NCBI GenBank assembly: GCA_900095095.1
Contig: FMBT01000373.1
Location: 124,001 to 188,000 of the forward strand
Length of the DNA: 64,000 bases
Source of the DNA: Fragilariopsis cylindrus CCMP1102
Lineage: Eukaryota > Bacillariophyta > Bacillariophyceae > Bacillariales > Bacillariaceae
Direction of reading: 5' to 3'
Shown here one piece after another: positions 30,671-64,000 of this stretch. Under the pieces are notes generated by a model, which was not told the DNA's origin, made no database searches, and saw only the letters and a list, made by a program, of their open reading frames with translations. A program made the position numbers and the translations under genes. Numbering within the stretch: position 1 is the first letter of the stretch; each line of letters starts with the position of its first letter.

Positions 30671-31168
30671 TGTTATCGTTTCGATCAAGGCCGTGTGGAG
30701 GATAGACAAATTGCCGACAAAGGTACGACGAGAGTATATATTATGAATGTCGAGTTGAACAGTATAGGACCTAGTACGCAAAGTGTGCTGTGTAAAGTCG
30801 TTGTGGAAAAGATATGAAGATACAGTGTGTACAGCAGGAGTGTTACAGTTGAGAATATCGTATTTTTTATTCAGATTTCATGATTCCTCAGAGGACATAA
30901 AAAAGACCTTCGCGTTATTGTGTCACGAGTTTGAATCACGTTTCAAAATACAAATTTCTGAAATGATGCACATTCGACTATTCTTATCATCATTCATTGA
31001 CATGCATCATGCATCCATTGCGGTCGTCTCTAAGTTACTCTGTCACTATCATAAATATATTGATCAATCGTTTCTATTAGACAGATCGACAATTCAGGAT
31101 TAGATACGGTAGAATACGATCGACGAGACGAGACTTTTTCTACGACGCATTATTTTTTTTAAATCACA
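30671..31168. promoter_or_regulatory. divergent promoter region (PKG-like / glycosyltransferase)
   Basis: About 500 bp between divergent start codons. ORFs here are short and unsupported. No named element recognised. Confidence 0.45.
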
Positions 31169-33048
31169 ATGGCAACACGACGGAATAATGTAGGCAATAT
31201 CATTCCCAACGACGACGTGCTGCTGTCCAATAATAAGCTCTCGAAAGCGACAATCACCAACTTTTCTTCTTCTTCTTCAAATAAGCAAGACGTTGATGGT
31301 CCATATAGCAATAGTAAACAAAAAAATCGTCATCAGCAGCATCAACTTATTTCTCATCGACTTATGACGATTGTGTTAATAATTTTTGTCATGATAACAG
31401 CTGTGACTACAGTTTCATTCATTGTTAAAATCGAATCTAATATTGCTTCTACGAAAGAAAACACTATTTTAAGTCTTAGTAGTAGAACGAAACAAAGTCT
31501 ACTAAACGATACTGTTCCAGAGATTATTGTAGCATTAAAAGTAGAAGGAGGAATAGGAATAGGTGGAGCAGGTAGTATAACAGGAGGCAACGACGATAAT
31601 AAGAATAATAAGGATAATAATGACAAGAATCAATCAAATAGAAATATAAATTCAGCGAAAACGAAAGAAAAACCGATGGAAATTTACATGACATTTGATG
31701 ATCCACCAATATATGAAGCTCCTATTATTGACCAGACGATTCTTGATTTCGATTATCCTAGTACTACTAATAGCATAAATAATGATGCAGCAGTTATTGT
31801 TACAAAAATCCAAGGTCCGCCACATCTACGTGCATTGAGACAAATGTTATGTTTACTAACAAAAGCATATAATAATCGTGTGCAACATGATATCATTATC
31901 TTTACATCAGAATTAATTGAACAAAGTGATATTGATGAATTACAAATGATTGTCTCGCCAGCAAGATTAATGGTTGAAATTGATAATCCTGGTTTACAAA
32001 ATATGGTCGATAATTTATCTGACAGTCAAAAGAAACATTTATTAGAACGTTGTGGTACTAATATAACATCATCATCAGAATTATCATGGTATACAGAATG
32101 TACCGAAGTTCGTTCCTATAGAACACTTAAAGGTGAACGTATCGCATATAATTGGCAAGCTGAATTCAGAGCATTATGGTTATGGATTCATCCATTATTA
32201 AAACCCTACAAGTATATGATGTAAGTTTTGTTTTGTTATTTTATTATATAGTATTTACTTATTTCTTCAACGACGACAACAACAACAACGTCACTTTTTG
32301 GACAAATAATATTGATCTCATAGTGTATAATTTTTCTTCTTTTTCATCATAGGTGGATGGACAGTGACGTATTTTGCACTAGAGTTTGGAAACAAGATCC
32401 TATCGCTACTATGAAGCGACATGACTTAGTATTGGTACGTAGACATATTGTATATAGTTTGATGTTTATGATCTTGACAAAGGATCTAATATTTCCGTGC
32501 ATCATAATTTGTTTTTGTTCCTCACTATCGATGTACACTCTTTTATTTTACCTGTATAACAGTTGTTTGATCATTTTCCACAAGGTGCTGCTCAAGGGAG
32601 TGAATTTCCAGCAATTACAAGAGAAGCCTTTAACAGAACAATATGTGGTGTTGATATGGTAAATGGGACCTTAGTTGCGAAAGATGGTAGGTGCTTTGGT
32701 AAGAAAAAGTCTAGAATAAAACAAGTTCATGGATTTTTCCATATTAGTAATCTTGATTTTTATAGAAGTGATGCTGTTATGAAATGGAATCGAGCATTGA
32801 TTGGTGAATCAAAATTCAGTCGACAATTTGATGATCAAATTGGTATTACGATACCGGCAGCTGTCTTGGCTGGTAACCGGTCACGAGATATGAGAAGTCT
32901 TGGCGTATATACCAGAGTATTTCACAATTATGTTATCGATGGTCATATGAAGGATTGGAGAGGATATTTTGTGCCGTGGTGGGAAAAAAATGCTAACACA
33001 ACATTCCCTGAGGCAAGTCAACAATGCTTTGTCGACATAAGTGGATAA
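31169..33048 (+). CDS. type II membrane glycosyltransferase with WMDSD (DxD) motif (spliced)
   Basis: Three exons: 31169-32220, 32353-32434 and 32563-33048, giving 539 residues. Introns are GT-AG, 132 and 128 nt. A signal anchor (about residues 62-84) is followed by a Gly/Asn-rich stem. The catalytic domain includes PPHLRALRQMLCLLTKAYN, WQAEFRALWLWIHPLLKPYK and, across the first intron, YKYMMWMDSDVFC, where DSD is the metal/nucleotide-sugar DxD. HGFFHISNLDFYRSDAVMKWN and DDQIG lie downstream. The arrangement resembles GT15 (Kre2/Mnt1 mannosyltransferase-like) or a related GT-A family; I cannot separate these by eye. Expected in the Golgi lumen. The N-terminal third has Asn and Ser runs; the catalytic part does not. 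Confidence 0.8.
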
Positions 33049-55098: not shown

Positions 55099-57210
55099 AT
55101 TTTGTTACTCATGATGATTGTCGTTTAAGTTAAGGTGTTGATGCGATGTTACAATGTGGCAAGGAAAGCGATGATGGCGGTATGGAAAATGGTCTGAATT
55201 GTGTGTGTAATGGTGTGTTCTATGATATGGGAAACGTAGTAGCTGATCTAGATCCTGTTGTTCGAGTATTTGTATTATCAATTATGTACTTCTAATAGAT
55301 ACACATTGGAGTTCATGATATTACTGCGGTAGGTTGACTCATCACAACAGCAGCAACTCTAAAAATGCATGACATCATCAGAAAATAATCATCAGCAAAA
55401 ACAACATTTCCCAGTCACAGTTTTTCGAACACGTACATACGCACGTAAACGTATTTACAGTACCGAAGTCTCAGTGAGCCAACTTACTTCTCAGTCACGA
55501 GCGAGAGGATGGCCCTGCCTTTTCATCAAGAAATCTTATTAAGGTGGTATCATCACGAATCCTTCGATATGGTGCGCGATGAGTCCAAAAATCACGGAAT
55601 TTGGAATTTCACCCCCATCGATTATCACCGTCTTTGATATCCTTTTTTTTTAAATCAAATCCTGTATATTCGTGTTTTTTTTTTGCGATTCCCTTTCTGT
55701 AGGTGTTCTCTTGTAACAGTAAAATAACGCCCACCCAATTTTTCGTACTAAGTACCATACAAAAACGTCGACCGAACCCCGAATAAAGTCCGACGAGCAT
55801 CTCTTCCCAAGAGTTAATATGCAATATCACACCACGGTGTATTCACCCGATCCTAGTGTTTTTTATTTTACCCTAACTAACAACACTGGAACGGAAGATG
55901 ATTCTGGTATCACTACCGGTTTCAAACCAGACAAATTCAGTTCTGTTCACTGTTACATCGACAACCATATGGACTATAGTTGTAATCCACCAATGGCAGA
56001 TATCACCCGGGTTTTTCCCAAAAAGGTCCAGAATAATCGTTCGTGATTGTAACTAAATAAGACACTAGTATACATTTTAAGAAACATTTCATTTATTACT
56101 ATACTATGGCTATTCGTATTAGTTGGATTTTATTTTATTAAAACTATTACCTATCATTTATATTGCATCGACTAAATTACGGTGTATGTTGCGACTATCT
56201 CGTTTCGTGCTTCATCAGGCAACTCGCTCAATGGAATCTGTACTTTGTCAGGCCATGTCATTGTGCTGGTACAACCAATGGTGTTCATGCAGTCATCGTA
56301 ACCATCACGAATATCGAATGGCACACGATGAGGACTCCATTCGTTGGCAAAATGAAGCACGTTGCTACACCATTTTGCCACGTTTTTGTAGTATACTTTC
56401 TTTCCAACATTTCCATCTTCAAATTCTTTGTTCAATGCGGCGATTTCTCTTTTCAAAGTAATGCAATTATCGTTGTACCGAAAAGATTCATTCGGGGAGG
56501 TGAACATCATGATACCCATTTCACCCTGTTGCATCGTCACCATGGTCAGTCCACCCGATTTTAAATCGTTGATGGTGGACTGGTCTAAGCAGTAATAAGA
56601 CGTATTCATGATGAGATTACTGTCTGTTTTTATGTTTTGTCCTAAATATCCAGTCAAAACACCTTTGGTATGGATTGTTACATGTGGGATTTGACCAGGG
56701 TGAAGAACACAAGACCAGGTTGAAGTACACAGGATCTACGCTTACCACCATAGGTCTGACGTCGACGCAGTACTGTACACAATGTTAGTAGTGTGTGGAT
56801 CGTTACTCCTCCAGTTATTATTATAACATCTTTCAACGGTTTTTCACCGTGTGAACAAAAATAACCGACTGGCGCGCCATATTATCGTTTGTGACACAAC
56901 CTCCACGATATATATTGTAACCATTCATTCATCCCGTACTGAAAAATAAAAAACGGTTGACATCATAAACCCATCACTCCGTTTCTTTTTGAAAACCAAA
57001 TTCGTAAACCACTCCGATACTGGCTGTTACGACAACTCATGGGTATTTTCCATGGACTGTTTCCTACTTCCTTCATCGTAGTTCTCCTCCTAATTCCTTT
57101 TTCTCACAATCTCAAAAAGAACAACATTCGAAAGCCTCCTTTCGATTGTCTCATATTCCACTAATCATATAATTCATTTGAGTTTTCAACTACTGCGTTT
57201 TTCAATAACC
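55099..57210. other. poorly resolved region with two possible small ORFs
   Basis: About 2.1 kb. A plus ORF at 55819-56046 (75 codons) and a minus ORF ending at 56172 (ATG at 56607-56609, 145 codons) are possible. The second reads like protein (NEFEDGN-type charged helices, three Cys) but has no family I know. No introns, TIRs or RNA genes were recognised. Confidence 0.35.
56172..56609 (-). CDS. possible hypothetical protein (145 aa)
   Basis: The frame extends a further 16 codons upstream to a TTG, but the first ATG is at 56607-56609. The predicted protein has balanced composition (ITLKREIAALNKEFEDGNVGKK, WCSNVLHFANEWSPHRVPFDI) with several cysteines and no low-complexity runs, unlike random AT-rich ORFs. 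No family recognised. It may belong to the accessory region to its right. Confidence 0.4.
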   Translation of the reverse strand: MNTSYYCLDQSTINDLKSGGLTMVTMQQGEMGIMMFTSPNESFRYNDNCITLKREIAALNKEFEDGNVGKKVYYKNVAKWCSNVLHFANEWSPHRVPFDIRDGYDDCMNTIGCTSTMTWPDKVQIPLSELPDEARNEIVATYTVI

Positions 57211-59694
57211 ATGTCCATCCTTCACGATGCTGCAGCATCAGCATCATATCCACCTCCCGATCTTCATGATTTGGTAAAGGCTATGAATGATGAAGAGCGA
57301 ACTACCGAATTGGCGACATTCGATACCGATTTCAAATTATTTTGGAAGAGTGACAATCATCTTCCTTTATCACAACGGTTGGATAAATATAGTCAGCAAC
57401 AGTTCTTGGACATTTTAATAGAAAAATTTCCAACATTGGCTAGTATGGAAGGAATTGTACTAGAAGCGGGTGTGGAGCAAATCAACGAACTTCAACCGGG
57501 GGACATCTCACCCTTAGCCAGCGACAACGACGATTATTTTTTGAAATTCGTGGCTGTTATAGGAGATTTCACCGTCAAATTCAGCAAAGAGTTGGACGAG
57601 ACAATATCACATCTAGAAGAAGAAGAGGTGTTGTCGAACGAGATACTTGCATCGAGAGATGTACTAACAATCTTGGTTGACAGTTTTCCTTACCTATCTG
57701 TAGCCCCAGCGGCACACCTTGAACTGCAACGGTTATTCCTTGTTCAAATTCGACATCACTTTGGAACCAACATCCTCGAGTCTCGCGGCGGTTTGATCTT
57801 TCACCTGGTTGAAATTTTTACCGGGTGTCATTGTCACCATGCATATAACAACTCCGACGAAATGTTTGACAAAGGCATGACCCTTTTGAAAAACAATTTA
57901 TCGATTGGAATGACATTTGTTGCTTGTGGTTCATTTGTCGATATGTTCGTTGAAAAAGGATTTTTAGAATTAAACAAGTCGGCAGTGGATGGAGTCGAAT
58001 GGATTAAGGTTCCCGAGGGAATGCTTGGAGAAGATTCATCCCTTATTTTACCGCCTGTACCTGCTGTACCCGCTGTACCTGCTGTACCCGCTGTACCAAA
58101 GCGAAAGAAGGTTGCTTTTGCTGCGTTAAATCAAGGTGATAATCAACTAGGTCCGAATTTTGCCCTATCACAATCTGATCATACTCAAATTCAACCAGGT
58201 CAGAATTTGGGACCGAGACGAAGTGAAAGAATTCTGATATCTCAACAGAAGAAACCTCAAACCCAATCAGTGGAGGTAGCACATCACTCATCAGATGAAG
58301 ATGATTCGGTAAGTAAATCGGACAGTGTTTCGATTTACGACCCGGGTGATGATACACTTGATCCGGATGAACCAATGGTACAGAATGATGGTGATGATAA
58401 CATTGAGGCTGCAGGCATACCAGACAACGGAGAATGGAGTGAACAGAATTATACGGATGACGGTTTGTGGACTGAGAAAGGATTCAGTGCGTCACTGCGT
58501 GAATATAGGCCAAAGAGAACCTGGACTACACCCGCCGCATGTATGGCTGGCCAACAACGAAAAAAACTGAAAGCAAATGTGGAAACTATGACGAACGTCT
58601 TCGACAGATACAGTCAGCGTCCTGGTATGGAGTTTCCATCACAAGAATTTATACTTCTACAAATTACCGACATCAATGGGGTTGGACACAAATACGAACC
58701 ATTATGCCGAAGAAAAAAAACAGCTGCGATGGCATATGGTCGACCCAAGGCCTTAGATGAGTTTAAAAGGTATTTGGAAAGTGAAACCAACGGAGAAAAT
58801 AATTATGTCAATCACACGGCAACCGACATAGATGAACTCACCCATTTTTGGAGAACAAACGAAGCAGGAAAAACTGTTAATGAAAATGCGGACGATCCGG
58901 ACGATCTGGAAGATGCGGAGGATCTGGTCGATTTAAATGCCACGACGAACGCACCAACTGCTAACAGTGAGGAAACAGTCATTGAACTACAACATCCGAC
59001 GGGGTTGGATGTCGCTGGGGTTGAATCCGACGGGCAACTAAATTTAAATGACAAAACGAACGAACCACCTGCTCACGGTGAGAAAACAGGTCAGGCCAAC
59101 GCAGAGGATGCTGCTAATGATGCGGGGTTGAATGTCGCACAGGGCACAAACAATACATCTGCCGAAACAGGTATCAGCAACTCAGGAAATTTGACCGCCG
59201 CGACGAACGGATCAACTGTTGACGATGCGGAAACAGCAACTAGCGGACAACAATATTCGACGGGGTTGAAAGTCGGTGAGGGTGACAACAACACCTCCGC
59301 CGAATCGTCCGCGGTAGTAGTGACGACGGGTACCCGCAAGAGCAACAGCGACGAAATCAAAGAAATATTACAACTATTTAATTTAAATGCCACAACGAAC
59401 GGATCAACTGTTGACGATGCGGAAACAGCAACTAGCGAACAACAACATTCGACGGGGTCGAATGTCGCAAGGGGCGGAAACATTCAACATTTGACGGTGA
59501 AAGCGCTATTGAGCGCACGTAATAGTGCTCGCACCACCGGTTCTGTAAATGGTAGCGCTAGTGGTAATAGTAGTGATAATAGAATAGGTGCTGATAACAA
59601 CAACAATAATGAAAAGAAGAAGAGAAAGAAGAAAAAGAAGAAAAAGGAGGAAAAGGAGGAAAAGGAGAAAAAGGAGAAAAAGAATAGAAAATAA
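57211..59694 (+). CDS. 827-residue repeat-bearing protein of unknown function, possibly mobile-element encoded
   Basis: I place the start at the ATG at 57211 (MSILHDAAASASYPPPD); the frame extends upstream only to a TTG at 57178. Residues 1-280 are helical and globular (LVDSFPYLSVAPAAHLELQRLFLVQIRHHFG, a CHCHH cluster). Then comes a VPA tripeptide repeat, a basic patch PKRKKVAFAA (possible NLS) and an acidic region. A second conserved-looking block follows (PKRTWTTPAACMAGQQRKK to GRPKALDEFKRYLESETNG). The C-terminal 220 residues carry degenerate repeats around ATTNGSTVDDAETATS and end in a Lys/Glu tail. No domain recognised. The nuclear-looking composition and position beside a transposase suggest an accessory protein of a mobile element; this is inference. 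Confidence 0.7.
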   Translation: MSILHDAAASASYPPPDLHDLVKAMNDEERTTELATFDTDFKLFWKSDNHLPLSQRLDKYSQQQFLDILIEKFPTLASMEGIVLEAGVEQINELQPGDISPLASDNDDYFLKFVAVIGDFTVKFSKELDETISHLEEEEVLSNEILASRDVLTILVDSFPYLSVAPAAHLELQRLFLVQIRHHFGTNILESRGGLIFHLVEIFTGCHCHHAYNNSDEMFDKGMTLLKNNLSIGMTFVACGSFVDMFVEKGFLELNKSAVDGVEWIKVPEGMLGEDSSLILPPVPAVPAVPAVPAVPKRKKVAFAALNQGDNQLGPNFALSQSDHTQIQPGQNLGPRRSERILISQQKKPQTQSVEVAHHSSDEDDSVSKSDSVSIYDPGDDTLDPDEPMVQNDGDDNIEAAGIPDNGEWSEQNYTDDGLWTEKGFSASLREYRPKRTWTTPAACMAGQQRKKLKANVETMTNVFDRYSQRPGMEFPSQEFILLQITDINGVGHKYEPLCRRKKTAAMAYGRPKALDEFKRYLESETNGENNYVNHTATDIDELTHFWRTNEAGKTVNENADDPDDLEDAEDLVDLNATTNAPTANSEETVIELQHPTGLDVAGVESDGQLNLNDKTNEPPAHGEKTGQANAEDAANDAGLNVAQGTNNTSAETGISNSGNLTAATNGSTVDDAETATSGQQYSTGLKVGEGDNNTSAESSAVVVTTGTRKSNSDEIKEILQLFNLNATTNGSTVDDAETATSEQQHSTGSNVARGGNIQHLTVKALLSARNSARTTGSVNGSASGNSSDNRIGADNNNNNEKKKRKKKKKKKEEKEEKEKKEKKNRK
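58051..58098 (+). repeat. GTACCTGCT/GTACCCGCT tandem repeat (VPA)
   Basis: Five nine-base units differing only at a synonymous T/C, encoding Val-Pro-Ala repeats. Conservation of the peptide with alternating codons is visible. Confidence 0.9.
59190..59480 (+). repeat. direct repeat of about 95 bp, two strong copies
   Basis: Copies at about 59195-59290 and 59388-59483 share long identical runs (for example GATGCGGAAACAGCAACTAG). They encode ATTNGSTVDDAETATS followed by QQ(Y/H)STG. More degenerate protein-level copies lie upstream from about 58935. Confidence 0.85.
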
Positions 59695-60109
59695 AATCAA
59701 TCAACGCCTATGTTGACATGAGTACACTGAAACATCGTTTACGGATAGGATTGGAACAGTAATTATTGGAACATAGCAATTGAGTTTTATACAACCTGGT
59801 GGATGTCATCACCACCAAGCTCGCTACCTATACAATCAACACGGTCAGAATTCACATAGGTTAAAAGTTACTTGGTTTATGCACAAACCAACCAAGTATG
59901 CCTATTATACAACTAACTAATAAAGAAAGTAGAACTAGATTTCATTACAAATATAGTTCTCTTTTATTATCTTTCTTCTGTGTTGCTTTTTTGCTTAATC
60001 TTTTTTTCTTTTTTACCAGTGGTTTATTCATCGTCGTTCATTACATTTACTCATCAATCTCAATCGGTTACTGTTATCACATTTCAATCATCCTCAATTT
60101 CTCTTTTGT
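59695..60109. other. convergent intergenic region with hairpin
   Basis: About 415 bp between convergent ORFs. ACTTGGTT at 59870-59877 and AACCAAGT at 59890-59897 form an 8-bp stem with a 12-base loop. The ORFs here are T-rich shadows of the adjacent minus-strand gene. Confidence 0.45.
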
Positions 60110-60868
60110 TTACTCGTCGTCGTCATCGTCTTCAATTTCAATTACCTCCTTTACTCCTTTTTCAATCTTGATCTGAACTTCGTCGTGAATCTCGATTACC
60201 TCGTTTGGTTTTTTTTTGGGATCGATGTAGTATTTGATTTGACGGGGACGGCAGATCGATTGCCTGGTGGAAACATCCGCGGGTAATCTAGCTTGTGGAG
60301 AAGAAACAGCACGCACGGTATTGGTTCGACGACGGTGGAGCTTGAACCCGGTGAAACCGACACCGGGTGGATTTGGCCATTCCTTTTTAATTGCCTCTGT
60401 TCCACAACGAGGGAGAGGAACGCGCTTGTTTATAGGTCCATATCCGTCGTGAAGAATGAAGTAAAAAAAACGATATCCAAGGAAGCGACGTTCATTGGCC
60501 GAGTACCTGCTTTCACCTCGCATAGAGTTAACATTACGAATTATCTCTACTCTATTGATTTCCCAAGCACAAGGATGACAATTGCAATGGGTGCAATTTT
60601 GCCTGGATGAATTTCCACCGGGGCTGTAATAGCACAGCATTCGTGTTGGTTCCTTGAAGTTGGTAATACGGAATCGTTTGCACTGTTCGTTAATACGAGC
60701 GTGTGTTTCTTTCCATGTTTCTTGTCTCGAGTAACAGAGCGACCAGGAATCAACCTTCTCAAATTCGACCTGTGGAACATCCCCCTGTGTAGGGACTGTT
60801 GGTACCCATTTGTGCAGCCTGTTGCAGATGGCATCAAATTCTCGATCTAAACTCATATACGATTCCAT
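60110..60868 (-). CDS. P2X7 C-terminal 'ballast'-like domain protein
   Basis: A 252-residue ORF from an ATG. A cysteine cluster, CTHCNCHPCAW (about residues 95-105), is followed at about residues 128-178 by NERRFLGYRFFYF, HDGYGPINKRVPLPRC, EAIKKEWP and GFTGFK. This matches the order of the human P2X7 tail (RHCAYRCYATW, a Gly-rich turn, LPSCCRWRIRKEFP, GQYSGFK). The ballast domain binds zinc through cysteines and, outside vertebrates, occurs in many proteins without a channel. There is no P2X channel part here. The tail is Lys/Glu-rich and ends in an Asp/Glu run. It overlaps the preceding ORF by 16 bp and sits beside a Mutator-like transposase. Confidence 0.65.
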   Translation of the reverse strand: MESYMSLDREFDAICNRLHKWVPTVPTQGDVPQVEFEKVDSWSLCYSRQETWKETHARINEQCKRFRITNFKEPTRMLCYYSPGGNSSRQNCTHCNCHPCAWEINRVEIIRNVNSMRGESRYSANERRFLGYRFFYFILHDGYGPINKRVPLPRCGTEAIKKEWPNPPGVGFTGFKLHRRRTNTVRAVSSPQARLPADVSTRQSICRPRQIKYYIDPKKKPNEVIEIHDEVQIKIEKGVKEVIEIEDDDDDE

Positions 60869-61374
60869 TTCGTATATACCAGACCTGTTCTGTGAACCAG
60901 CGTGGATTTCAGGGTAGTCTTCAATTTGGAAAACGATTTGAGGTTGTTAATATTGTACACAAACTCGTGGAGGATAGCAATGCCTCCAATAACCATTCGA
61001 CGCTCAGTGAATAAATCACTTTCCCTCTCTTTGTAAATGGGGTTGCCTCCGCCCATGAGAGTGTGGATTACTTTTACGCAATCTGTGTAACTTGTCCAAA
61101 ACGGTAGATGTACTCGAACTATCTTCTTGAGCACCTGGATGGTATTCTGTTCACCATCTACCTCCTGCAAATGATATTCAGCAGTGAAAGTTACCGAACG
61201 GTCCTCATACAGCAAATACGACATGGGTGGAACTTGAAGAGGTTTGTATTGAGAGACTATCCAGATCGGGTGTTCCAATTTATCGTCGTAAGGCAGGTAT
61301 ATAGTTTCATCCGAGAAATGAGAGGAGACTGACAATAAAAATTGCTCAAAGCCATTAACAACAGAAAACAACAT
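60853..61374 (-). CDS. hypothetical protein overlapping the ballast-like gene
   Basis: A 173-residue ORF from an ATG with balanced composition, no repeats and no signal peptide apart from a mildly hydrophobic start. Features include DEHPIWIVSQYKPLQVPPMSY-like beta-rich sequence and a central VRVHLPFWTSYTDCVKVIH. No family recognised. Its stop lies 16 bp inside the start of the ballast-like ORF in another frame. The pair may be two genes, a spliced or read-through unit, or one gene split by a frame change. Confidence 0.55.
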   Translation of the reverse strand: MLFSVVNGFEQFLLSVSSHFSDETIYLPYDDKLEHPIWIVSQYKPLQVPPMSYLLYEDRSVTFTAEYHLQEVDGEQNTIQVLKKIVRVHLPFWTSYTDCVKVIHTLMGGGNPIYKERESDLFTERRMVIGGIAILHEFVYNINNLKSFSKLKTTLKSTLVHRTGLVYTKWNRI

Positions 61375-62178
61375 GATACGTGTTGTAATTGGATACTACT
61401 GTTTTGTCGAACGAAGTTGCAAATTATGATCATATTGTTCGACTTCCACAATATTTAGGTCAAGTATAGTGCTTTTTGTTACTTAGTACGCTAAAATAAT
61501 AAAGGATAGAAGTAGGTCGTGTTCAAAATGGAGGGAACTATAGCATTGTTGTATACAACCGGGGGTGCTAACGCTTTGATTTGTCAAACGGAAGATCCAG
61601 CCCTGCTCTTGATGCTTACGAATGATGGCCGGTGAAAGTCCCTCTCTTTCTGGAAAGCAACCGTGTTAGATATTGAGTTGAAAACGGAGGGAAACATGTG
61701 ATTTGTTGCCGGTTGTATGGGCGTTTTTGAATCGACCTGGAAGACTATCAACAGGTTTGTATAGCCGGCGTGTATTAGATCTTTCAACTATTCTTATTAC
61801 AATTTCATAGGAGATAAATACCAAGCACCTGCACCTGCACGTATTCAGAAAAGGCGCGCAATTTTTCGGATTTTGGGGGGTAAGTCAGTACTACCTACCG
61901 ATGGGCTCGTCGTAACCGTTAACGACAAAAAGGCTGCATTACAGCAACAGACAATTTGAAAGAATGACAATACTGATTTGAATCTTGTCCGTCCAGTTTG
62001 ATTTGACACGAGTGTGGTTTGTATAGATACGTGGTTCGAATAGATGCTTTGCACAACCTGGTCGTTGGTTGTCGAATCAAATGGTTCACCGCGCTCGTTA
62101 TGGATTCCGCTACTGACAGAGAACAGAGCACAAGGAAACAATACTATTACGTGAACCAGGAATGTTGTTTTAGTTGAA
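61375..62178. other. region between accessory genes
   Basis: About 800 bp upstream of the divergent accessory ORFs. Short minus ORFs (61584-61787, 61845-62141) lack features. It should hold the promoters of both the minus-strand pair and the transposase. I could not see a terminal inverted repeat. Confidence 0.4.
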
Positions 62179-62258
62179 GCAATTTATTTGATCCATGGTG
62201 TTTTTACAAATAGGTTAAAGCAATTATTTGATCCATGGTGTTTTACAAATAGGTTGAA
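62179..62258. repeat. 40-bp tandem duplication
   Basis: GCAATTTATTTGATCCATGG... at 62179-62219 is followed at once by a near-identical copy at 62220-62258 (about two indels and two substitutions). It lies just before the recognisable part of the transposase and is read there as FDPWCFTNRLN-type repeats. Confidence 0.9.
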
Positions 62259-62381
62259 CTTGGCACATTGGGTGAATGATGGGGGGGGTCGAATTTTTGT
62301 AAACAAGTGTGACGATCGGAATGTAATAATTGCATGGAAGAGCATAACTGCTCTTCTTGTCGAAAACACAGTGTGTTGTAA

Positions 62382-64000
62382 ATGCAGGAAAATGAACACA
62401 ATGGATTTTGTGCCGAAACTATCGGAATAGCTACAAAGGTCAGTCTAGCATGTAAGAATGTGATTTGTGAAAAATATAACGAATGGTCCGTCAAGGAACC
62501 AGCCATGGTTGATTTGGATAAGTTGGTTGACGACAAGTGCGATCCATATGATATAAAAAAATGTGGTAACCGTGCTACTCGACAGTATCAACTCAATCTA
62601 GACTTGACTTTAGGTATAATGATGATTGGAGGTGGCGGACACGATTACGCATTGGTTGCCTCTCAGCTTAATCTATGTTGCAGCCAGCGACAATTGCTAG
62701 ACTCGTTTACATCCAATGAAGAAACTATGGCTCTGCACATAATAAAAATGGCGGAAGAAGTAGTTGAAAGAAACTTGAACGACGAAAAAAAGGAATCACA
62801 ATTGGTCAACGATCCAATCACTGATGAGGTGCACCTCGTTGCAGATACGATTAGAAAAAGAAAGGCGGGTGAAAATACCCCTATGTCAAATACACCCGCG
62901 TTGGAAGTAGATGCAGTTTCGTTGGACGAAAACCAAGAAGCGAGACCAAGACCAAAGAAAAAACGAAACATAGGCGTATCTATGGATGCTGGATGGAGAA
63001 AGCGTAGCTCCGGAAGAACTTACGACGCACAACAAGCCCAATTTTTTGCTTTTGGAGTAGAGACGAATAAAATTCTCTACTTTGAGCAGATGTCCACGCG
63101 TTGTCGAAAATGTGAACACAAGTTGGAACACGATCCGAAATTGTGCTCGCATAACTATACAGGTTCTGCAAAGGGAATGGAACCTCATGCTGCTTTGAAA
63201 TGCATCCAATCGATTTTTTCCAAGGGTGATGCGTTTGTAGGCACTATTGTTACTGATGACGATTCCAGTATGAGAGCCCGACTAAAACAGAATGGAAGAG
63301 AAAAGATAGAAGCAGGATTATGTCGAAAGGAGGACCTAACGCCAACCATCCAATTGAGCAACAAAAACGACCACGGTGCACTTGAACTGAACATACCTGA
63401 ACCTATCTGTAAAGCGGATGCTAATCACAGAGTGCGTGGATTCGGTAATGCAGTTCAGAAGTTAGTTAACATGAGGAAGGGGGAAAGTGGGGGAGTAACT
63501 GGTGTTGACCGTGATCGATTGAAAGTCAATTTTGCGTACGCTCGGGCTAAGAATGTGGATAAGGATTTCAATTTATTCTGTGCTGCATTCGCACCAGTTA
63601 TAGAGCATCATTTTAATAATCACGAACTGTGCGGTGAGTGGTGCGCTGCTAAAAAGCTAACTGATACAAAAAAATCGGCGGATCATTTACATTATCGTTG
63701 CAAAGTCAAAAACAAATTAATGTATGATAACTTGAAGGAGATACACAAACGTTATACCACCGAGCAACAACTACGAGAAATACACCATAAGGTAAATACA
63801 AATTTGAGTGAATCAGCAAACTTTGTTGTAACAAAGTTTTTGCCCAAACACAAGAATTTCGGAACGACAATAGCGGATAAAGGTAGGGTCCATTTCTCGG
63901 TATGTATTATTACAGACGGGTACAAATCCACCATGGTTGAATTGTATAAGAGAATGGGATTTGAAAATAATCTGCTACGAGTAAAGGGATGGACGGATAT
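62382..64000 (+). CDS. Mutator-like transposase (PF20700-type), partial, runs off the right edge
   Basis: From 62382 a plus frame is open to the window end (539 codons). Residues match the Mutator-like domain family: LTLGIMMIGGGGHDYALVASQLNL, then IGVSMDAGWRKRSSGRTYDA (first catalytic Asp), RCRKCEHKL...CSHNYTGSAKGMEP (zinc-type cysteines), TIVTDDDSSMRAR (second Asp) and NLSESANFVVTKFLPKHKNFG (the Glu-Asn region). The upstream part continues in another frame, 62260-62440: RNVIIAWKSITALLVENTVCCKC, which normally precedes AETIGIATKVSLACKN in this family. One frame break therefore lies between about 62380 and 62440 (no normal-length intron fits). The true start is unresolved. It is a plain DNA transposon enzyme; the cysteine pairs look complete. 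Confidence 0.85.
   Translation, partial: MQENEHNGFCAETIGIATKVSLACKNVICEKYNEWSVKEPAMVDLDKLVDDKCDPYDIKKCGNRATRQYQLNLDLTLGIMMIGGGGHDYALVASQLNLCCSQRQLLDSFTSNEETMALHIIKMAEEVVERNLNDEKKESQLVNDPITDEVHLVADTIRKRKAGENTPMSNTPALEVDAVSLDENQEARPRPKKKRNIGVSMDAGWRKRSSGRTYDAQQAQFFAFGVETNKILYFEQMSTRCRKCEHKLEHDPKLCSHNYTGSAKGMEPHAALKCIQSIFSKGDAFVGTIVTDDDSSMRARLKQNGREKIEAGLCRKEDLTPTIQLSNKNDHGALELNIPEPICKADANHRVRGFGNAVQKLVNMRKGESGGVTGVDRDRLKVNFAYARAKNVDKDFNLFCAAFAPVIEHHFNNHELCGEWCAAKKLTDTKKSADHLHYRCKVKNKLMYDNLKEIHKRYTTEQQLREIHHKVNTNLSESANFVVTKFLPKHKNFGTTIADKGRVHFSVCIITDGYKSTMVELYKRMGFENNLLRVKGWTD

What the first reader, a model, noticed from the sequence alone, without database searches (positions are those of the whole stretch)
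60110..64000. P2X7 'ballast'-like protein encoded head-to-head with a Mutator-like transposase
Seen: a 252-residue ORF with the Cys cluster and LPxC / GFxGFK order of the P2X7 C-terminal domain lies about 1 kb from a PF20700-type transposase on the other strand, with a third unknown ORF overlapping it. Known: the vertebrate P2X7 tail is thought to derive from an older, mobile ballast domain. Inference: the domain may travel as an accessory gene of Mutator-like elements, giving a route for its spread.
Basis: partly seen in the sequence, partly recalled or inferred. Interest (0 to 1): 0.85.

Follow-up and report, generated by a model that had tools for sequence, protein, structure and literature searches.

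The report
Divergent ballast-like gene in Kolobok-type transposon
A jumping gene in what looks like a single-celled alga seems to carry a distant cousin of the protein module that became the tail of the vertebrate immune receptor P2X7, a pairing already described in animals but, in the two key papers checked here, not outside them.

Summary
The ORFs are real. The 252-aa ORF (60110-60868, -) lies divergently from a PF20700 transposase ORF (62382 to the window end, +), with a 173-aa ORF overlapping its start. The transposase match is solid (5.6e-31). Its DDE order, DxxH motif and extra zinc finger are, by my reading, those that Kojima & Bao 2022 give for Kolobok rather than MuDR.

The ballast claim is only partly right. 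The protein misses Pfam PF20478, and two AlphaFold models are useless (pLDDT 34 and 41). Two of three cysteine clusters do not fit the published consensus. Its C-terminal half does resemble the ballast/KolX C-terminal half: a profile of one mussel exon plus three P2X7 chains ranks it first of 1195 window segments (15.1 bits, E 0.0014). No shuffle (0 of 5000) and no simulated segment (0 of 134,855) reached that level. P2X7 chains alone do not find it (E about 2).

The proposed route is not new: Kojima & Bao (PMC9587614) report that animal Kolobok (Kol0) transposons encode KolX, a ballast-fold protein, and derive the P2X7 tail from it. What would be new is a KolX-like gene outside Metazoa. Host identity and termini could not be tested.

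The parts
60110..60868 (-). 252-aa KolX/ballast-like ORF; ballast-like stretch is residues 128-177 (about 60338-60487)
   Evidence: no PF20478 hit
60853..61374 (-). 173-aa ORF overlapping the start of the 252-aa ORF; no family found; may be a chance frame or an upstream exon
   Evidence: no Pfam hit, no PHROGs or NCBIfam hit at E 0.1; a frame this long in 20 of 300 simulated 24-kb stretches; codon use not host-like
62382..63998 (+). PF20700 DDE transposase, Kolobok-type signature by my reading (D201, D292, D346xxH349, zinc finger around C417/C421, E477), cut by the window end
61375..62381 (.). divergent intergenic region between the two outward-reading ORF sets, possible shared promoter region
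   Evidence: coordinates; no ORF of 100 aa or more inside; inference
62173..62255 (.). 40-bp tandem repeat, 2.1 copies, inside the divergent intergenic region
59861..59896 (+). candidate, unproven left end: TTAA followed by AAGTT (5'-RR) and a short ACTTGG...CCAAGT inverted repeat
   Evidence: sequence; TTAA list; no second copy in the window

Best explanation
The region is part of a Kolobok-type cut-and-paste DNA transposon in a microbial eukaryote. It carries two divergent genes: a DDE transposase and a diverged KolX-like accessory protein whose C-terminal half is homologous to the ballast domain of P2X7. Inferred mechanism: the transposase excises the element and inserts it at TTAA. The KolX-like protein is not catalytic. 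It is a small zinc-stabilised adaptor that assists the transposase or tethers it to host factors; its basic patch and acidic VIEI-EDDDDDE tail would fit such tethering. Shown: the ORFs, the transposase family and signature, and significant but weak C-terminal similarity. Inferred: that both genes lie in one element, the zinc binding, the accessory role, TTAA targeting, and the algal host.
For: PF20700 5.6e-31. The signature D201, D292, D346xxH349, HFNNHELCGEWC, E477 (residues assigned by eye) fits the Kolobok description in PMC9587614: C/DxxH plus a zinc finger before the last E, which MuDR, P and hAT lack. Ballast similarity: Smith-Waterman 57 against a mussel ZCD exon, best of 1195 window segments, 4 of 20,000 shuffles. 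The mussel exon alone ranks the ORF first (phmmer E 0.011) and the 4-sequence profile ranks it first at 15.1 bits, E 0.0014. For the profile: 0 of 5000 shuffles; 0 of 134,855 segments from 100 simulated windows, top 12.9; top 9.1 in 3640 segments from 16 prokaryote stretches. The mussel exon is a true family member (PF20478, 66.3 bits). Of the residues that Rump et al. list as conserved, these recur in order: R546=R128, Y550=Y132, Y/F553=F135, P570=P153, C572=C155, P582=P165, with G for A549, K for R578 and W for F/Y581 (my mapping). Ballast proteins are already known as partners of Kolobok transposases.
Against: No PF20478 match at any reported E-value. Profiles from P2X7 chains alone rank the ORF only third, fourth or fifth in three searches, E 1.9 to 2.6, each time below an unrelated segment. 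The W and the I/V568 that Rump et al. list are not kept. Cysteine clusters 1 and 2 do not fit. Both AlphaFold models failed (pLDDT 34.4 and 40.9) and the Foldseek PDB search of the second gave nothing at E 0.001 or better. The transposase seems to carry the second CCHC finger (C241, C244, H250, C255), which the paper lists for KolobokP, E, D, 5 and a few solitary families and not for Kol0, the KolX-bearing lineage. No second copy, terminal inverted repeats or target duplication could be shown.
Confidence: 0.62

Rival explanations
1. The likeness is chance: an unrelated cysteine-rich small protein of the transposon or host that happens to contain an LPxC...IKKEWP...GFTGFK stretch.
For: No PF20478 hit; P2X7-only profiles give E about 2; cysteine spacing wrong; the finding was picked by a reader from a long scan, so some multiple testing is hidden.
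Against: Adding one independent animal relative raises the score to first of 1195 with clean nulls. It sits beside the very kind of transposase that carries ballast proteins in animals.
Confidence: 0.2
2. A genuine KolX-like gene, but a host (domesticated, nanor-like) gene that only neighbours the transposase; the two are not one mobile unit.
For: Rump et al. describe ZCD genes of animals as mostly short proteins without other domains, one to a few per species; the mussel example is matched in two separate pieces, as if in two exons, with no PF20700 match in the assembly it lies in. No termini are shown here.
Against: Tight divergent arrangement with no ORF of 100 aa or more between the two ORF sets. 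Codon preference of the ORF is only weakly host-like (0.047 per codon against 0.289 for uL3 and 0.067 for the MatE gene, both of the training set), so it does not decide.
Confidence: 0.12
3. The window is animal DNA, so this is an ordinary, already described Kol0 element.
For: The host was not identified; Kol0 elements are reported from many animals.
Against: Of the 60 uL3 chains shown (of 70 matched), the best three (fungal, by recall) align without length difference, while human, Xenopus and fly chains (by recall) need 8 more residues for the same stretch. 25 ORFs of 200 aa or more in 64 kb, a few of them antisense to others, is microbial gene density. The protein is far more diverged from P2X7 than the mussel one.
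Confidence: 0.04

Closest known systems
Kolobok superfamily, Kol0 lineage with KolX (Kojima & Bao 2022, PMC9587614)
   Same: DDE transposase with C/DxxH and an extra zinc finger before the last E; second gene related to the P2X7 ballast domain
   Different: Kol0 is reported there from animals; this copy lies in an apparently non-animal eukaryote, its KolX-like protein has lost or reshaped the first two cysteine clusters, and its transposase seems to have the second CCHC finger not listed for Kol0
ZCD / P2RX7_C (PF20478, PTHR36981): P2X7 tail, nanor, animal ZCD proteins (Rump et al. 2020, PMC7016195)
   Same: R...(A/G)YRx(F/Y) and LPxC-x4-I(R/K)-x2-(F/Y/W)P...GF in the same order and nearly the same spacing
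   Different: Below the Pfam cut-off; cysteine cluster 2 absent; no P2X domain; that paper did not find the domain in fungi, plants, bacteria or Monosiga and suggested a metazoan invention
KolX-like C-terminal proteins of a few piggyBac families (mentioned in PMC9587614)
   Same: Similarity limited to the C-terminal part, most of the 7 cysteines not kept
   Different: Different transposase superfamily; sequences not available here for comparison

Membership tests
ZCD / ballast (PF20478) | Score above Pfam's curated cut-off (23.5 bits) | tested here: not met
   the mussel relative passes with 66.3 bits
ZCD / ballast (PF20478) | Cluster 1 PxWCxCx2C | tested here: not met
   CxCx2C present at C95, C97, C100 but no PxW before it
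ZCD / ballast (PF20478) | Cluster 2 LCCRx3GxCITTS/T | tested here: not met
   absent after C100; an LCYYSPGG...C stretch lies upstream instead
ZCD / ballast (PF20478) | Cluster 3 (L/I/V)PSC(C/S)x3IRx2(F/Y)Px5Y(S/T)G | tested here: inconclusive
   7 of 12 defined positions with one extra residue; the mussel exon has 11 of 12 (my count on sequences); profile E 0.0014
ZCD / ballast (PF20478) | Ballast fold | tested here: inconclusive
   AlphaFold pLDDT 34.4 and 40.9; Foldseek of the second model against PDB, no match at E 0.001 or better
Kolobok superfamily | DDE transposase with C/DxxH between second D and E | tested here: met
   D201, D292, DANH 346-349, E477 in order (assigned by eye, no Kolobok reference aligned); PF20700 5.6e-31
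Kolobok superfamily | Zinc finger between C/DxxH and the last E (absent in MuDR, P, hAT) | tested here: met
   HFNNHELCGEWC 410-421 between DANH and E477 (by eye); criterion
Kolobok superfamily | TTAA target duplication, 5'-RR...YY-3' termini, terminal inverted repeats | not testable with these tools
   right end lies beyond base 64000; no genome held; one candidate left TTAA only
Kol0 lineage | Transposase in the Kol0 clade, partner KolX | tested here: inconclusive
   no Kolobok reference sequences on hand; a CCHC-like finger after the first D is listed for other lineages

The most novel reading that the evidence does not exclude
Kolobok-type transposons of protists carry a KolX/ballast gene. 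The module that became the P2X7 tail would then be a transposon accessory protein older and wider than animals (or spread by horizontal transfer), contrary to the view that it is a metazoan invention. In this branch its zinc cluster is rebuilt, and it partners a transposase that is not of the classical Kol0 type.
Probability: 0.45. Interest if true: 0.62.

Novelty: new variant of a known kind. Interest (0 to 1): 0.45.

Why it matters
Rump et al. 2020 suggested that the ballast domain is an invention of Metazoa. Kojima & Bao 2022 traced it to KolX of animal Kolobok elements. A KolX-like gene next to a Kolobok-type transposase in a non-animal eukaryote would push the module's origin outside animals. 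It would also give a minimal, diverged version in which to ask what KolX does for transposition, which neither paper answers in the parts I read.

Tried and rejected
Pfam at E up to 10 on the whole protein and on two trimmed and one extended form: only unrelated weak names (DUF7932, Interferon). PHROGs and NCBIfam: nothing for the 252-aa and 173-aa ORFs, no useful hit for the other two. PDB by sequence: no P2X7 hit for the 252-aa protein and nothing useful for the transposase.

Only one real relative came, a mussel-type ZCD gene in a contig filed under a Bathymodiolus gill symbiont. The same pattern, and one written from the window protein, found nothing in viral contigs. The search for related loci gave none. 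PF20478 over prokaryote genomes gave, besides that contig, two weak hits in 369 genomes of the class (24.1 bits, just over the cut-off, with three stops inside; 20.4 bits). I did not examine those two and treat them as probable chance; they show how noisy this profile is near its cut-off. Family and order searches gave only the mussel contig in 83 genomes each. PF20700 was found in 0 of 398 prokaryote genomes of the phylum and 0 of 1 for the symbiont, with no positive control.

Rejected: filing the element under MuDR/Mutator on the strength of the Pfam name, because of the extra zinc finger. Rejected: reading the 173-aa ORF as part of the 252-aa gene; 129 GT-AG pairings could join the frames, too many to choose from. 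Rejected: claiming a left end at 59861, since no partner repeat can be seen. The mapping of PF20700 to Kolobok rests on the signature and on my recall; the Kolobok paper does not mention PF20700 (0 occurrences in the main text).
Full report
What is there. The last 4 kb of the window hold a 252-aa ORF (60110-60868, -), a 173-aa ORF overlapping its start by 16 bases (60853-61374, -), and a transposase ORF reading the other way (62382 to the window end). The start codons of the 252-aa ORF and the transposase are 1.5 kb apart. The 252-aa frame is beyond chance length: a frame of 278 open codons appeared in 0 of 300 simulated 24-kb stretches. One of 180 codons, as for the 173-aa ORF, appeared in 20 of 300. 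Codon preference, trained on 14 ORFs of the window, supports the reading frame of the transposase (0.126 per codon) and weakly that of the 252-aa ORF (0.047), not that of the 173-aa ORF (-0.062). So the third ORF is the weak one.

The transposase. Pfam calls it PF20700 Mutator (5.6e-31). Its landmarks are D201, a CCHC-like group C241/C244/H250/C255, D292, D346xxH349, HFNNHELCGEWC (410-421) and E477 (I chose them by eye, without a Kolobok reference to align). Kojima & Bao 2022 (PMC9587614; [quoted passage not shown] They give a zinc finger between it and the last E as present in almost all Kolobok transposases and absent in MuDR, P and hAT. By that test this is Kolobok-type. The defining TTAA duplications and RR...YY ends cannot be tested, since the element runs off the window and no genome is held.

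Prior art. The same paper states that KolX, the second protein of the Kol0 Kolobok lineage, is clearly similar to residues 476-595 of human P2X7 and adopts the cytoplasmic ballast fold. It concludes that P2X7 arose by fusion of a P2X4-like gene with KolX and that nanor is likely a domesticated KolX. The paper lists a diatom (Fragilariopsis cylindrus) among Kolobok hosts, but in the passages seen names the Kol0 lineage only from animals. Rump et al. 2020 (PMC7016195; passages and section 11) did not find the domain in fungi, plants, bacteria or Monosiga and proposed a metazoan invention. Searches for P2X7+ballast domain, KolX+Kolobok, Kolobok+diatom+transposon, nanor+P2X7+transposon, PF20700, PF20478, PTHR36981, P2X purinoceptor 7+transposable element and Kolobok+stramenopile showed, by titles and starts of abstracts, no report of a KolX or ballast gene outside animals; of the listed papers I opened only these two, and preprints and most subscription papers are not in the library.

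Is the 252-aa protein ballast-like? Results against: no PF20478 match. With P2X7 chains alone the ORF ranks third by phmmer (E 1.9) and fourth and fifth by two hmmsearch profiles (E 2.3 and 2.6), below an unrelated segment at 31103-31276 in all three. AlphaFold without relatives gave pLDDT 34.4; residues 60-185 with the mussel exon as a second row gave 40.9. Cysteine clusters 1 and 2 of the published consensus do not fit, and the W and I/V568 that Rump et al. list as conserved are not kept.

Results for: Smith-Waterman against the rat P2X7 fragment scores 47, best of 762 window segments of 40 aa or more, reached by 12 of 5000 shuffles. A DNA pattern written from the P2X7 chain and my recall of the family, not from this protein, found one match in genome contigs (one genome for each of 84,980 prokaryote species): a ZCD gene in a contig filed under a Bathymodiolus symbiont, presumably mussel DNA, which PF20478 recognises at 66.3 bits. 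Against that exon the window protein scores 57, best of 1195 segments of 30 aa or more, reached by 4 of 20,000 shuffles. The exon alone as a phmmer query puts it first with E 0.011. A profile of that exon and three P2X7 chains puts it first of 1195 at 15.1 bits, E 0.0014, the next at 10.3. Shuffles reach the score of the 252-aa form 0 of 5000 times (top 10.6), segments of 100 simulated windows 0 of 134,855 times with a top of 12.9, and 3640 segments from 16 prokaryote stretches top out at 9.1. The alignment covers about residues 128-177: ERRFLGYRFFYF...HDGYGPINKRVPLPRCGTEAIKKEWPNPPGVGFTGFK against NRYAAYRQYTIW...[34 protein letters not shown]. I take this as probable homology of the C-terminal half only.

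Mechanism, committed. Most likely a two-gene Kolobok-type cut-and-paste element: transposase for cutting and joining at TTAA, and a KolX-like zinc protein as accessory. The tail of the protein has two VIEI stretches (224-227 and 242-245), the last followed by EDDDDDE. That resembles SUMO-interacting motifs (recalled, not tested) and would suit tethering to host repair or chromatin proteins. The match to the Kol0 arrangement is imperfect, because the transposase seems to have the second finger that the paper lists for other lineages.

Host. The window's uL3 is nearest to chains that I recall as fungal (best 520 bits), then plant (about 506), then animal (about 493). Human, Xenopus and fly chains need 8 more residues to align the same stretch while the three best need none (60 of 70 matched chains shown; the table names molecules only, so the organisms are recalled). 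With 25 ORFs of at least 200 aa in 64 kb, a few of them antisense to others, an animal is unlikely. No tRNA or Rfam match helped.

Verdict. Real ORFs, real Kolobok-type transposase, probable but diverged KolX-like partner; a known kind of pairing in an unexpected host. The finding's headline inference is anticipated in print. The residual novelty is its occurrence outside animals and the altered zinc cluster.

Noticed in passing
57178-59694 (+): 838-aa ORF of no known family ending convergently with the 252-aa ORF; it holds three diverged copies of an about 88-bp coding repeat (73-90% identical) and a Lys/Glu-rich tail. Whether it belongs to the element is open.
   Followed up: partly
62188-62430 (+): A frame just upstream of the transposase start, overlapping it, ends with a CCKC stretch like a zinc knuckle; it may be the transposase's missing N-terminus behind a frame change or intron. 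Pfam finds nothing in it.
   Followed up: partly
60110-60200 (-): The C-terminus of the 252-aa protein has two VIEI motifs, the last before EDDDDDE, resembling SUMO-interacting motifs (recalled).
   Followed up: no
59861-59896: TTAA followed by AAGTT and a short hairpin-like inverted repeat: a candidate transposon end without a visible partner.
   Followed up: partly
59784, 61548, 62046: Three direct copies of a GTTTTATACAACCTGG-like 16-mer (81-100% identical) spaced across the region; possible binding sites, possibly chance.
   Followed up: no
L001:2255-3328: A ZCD/KolX-type gene, seemingly in two exons, in a contig filed under a Bathymodiolus brooksi thiotrophic gill symbiont: probable mussel contamination of a bacterial assembly.
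   Followed up: yes
L004, L005: Two weak PF20478 matches in bacterial genomes (24.1 bits with three stops inside; 20.4 bits), covering profile positions 53-118 and 76-142; probably chance, not examined further.
   Followed up: no
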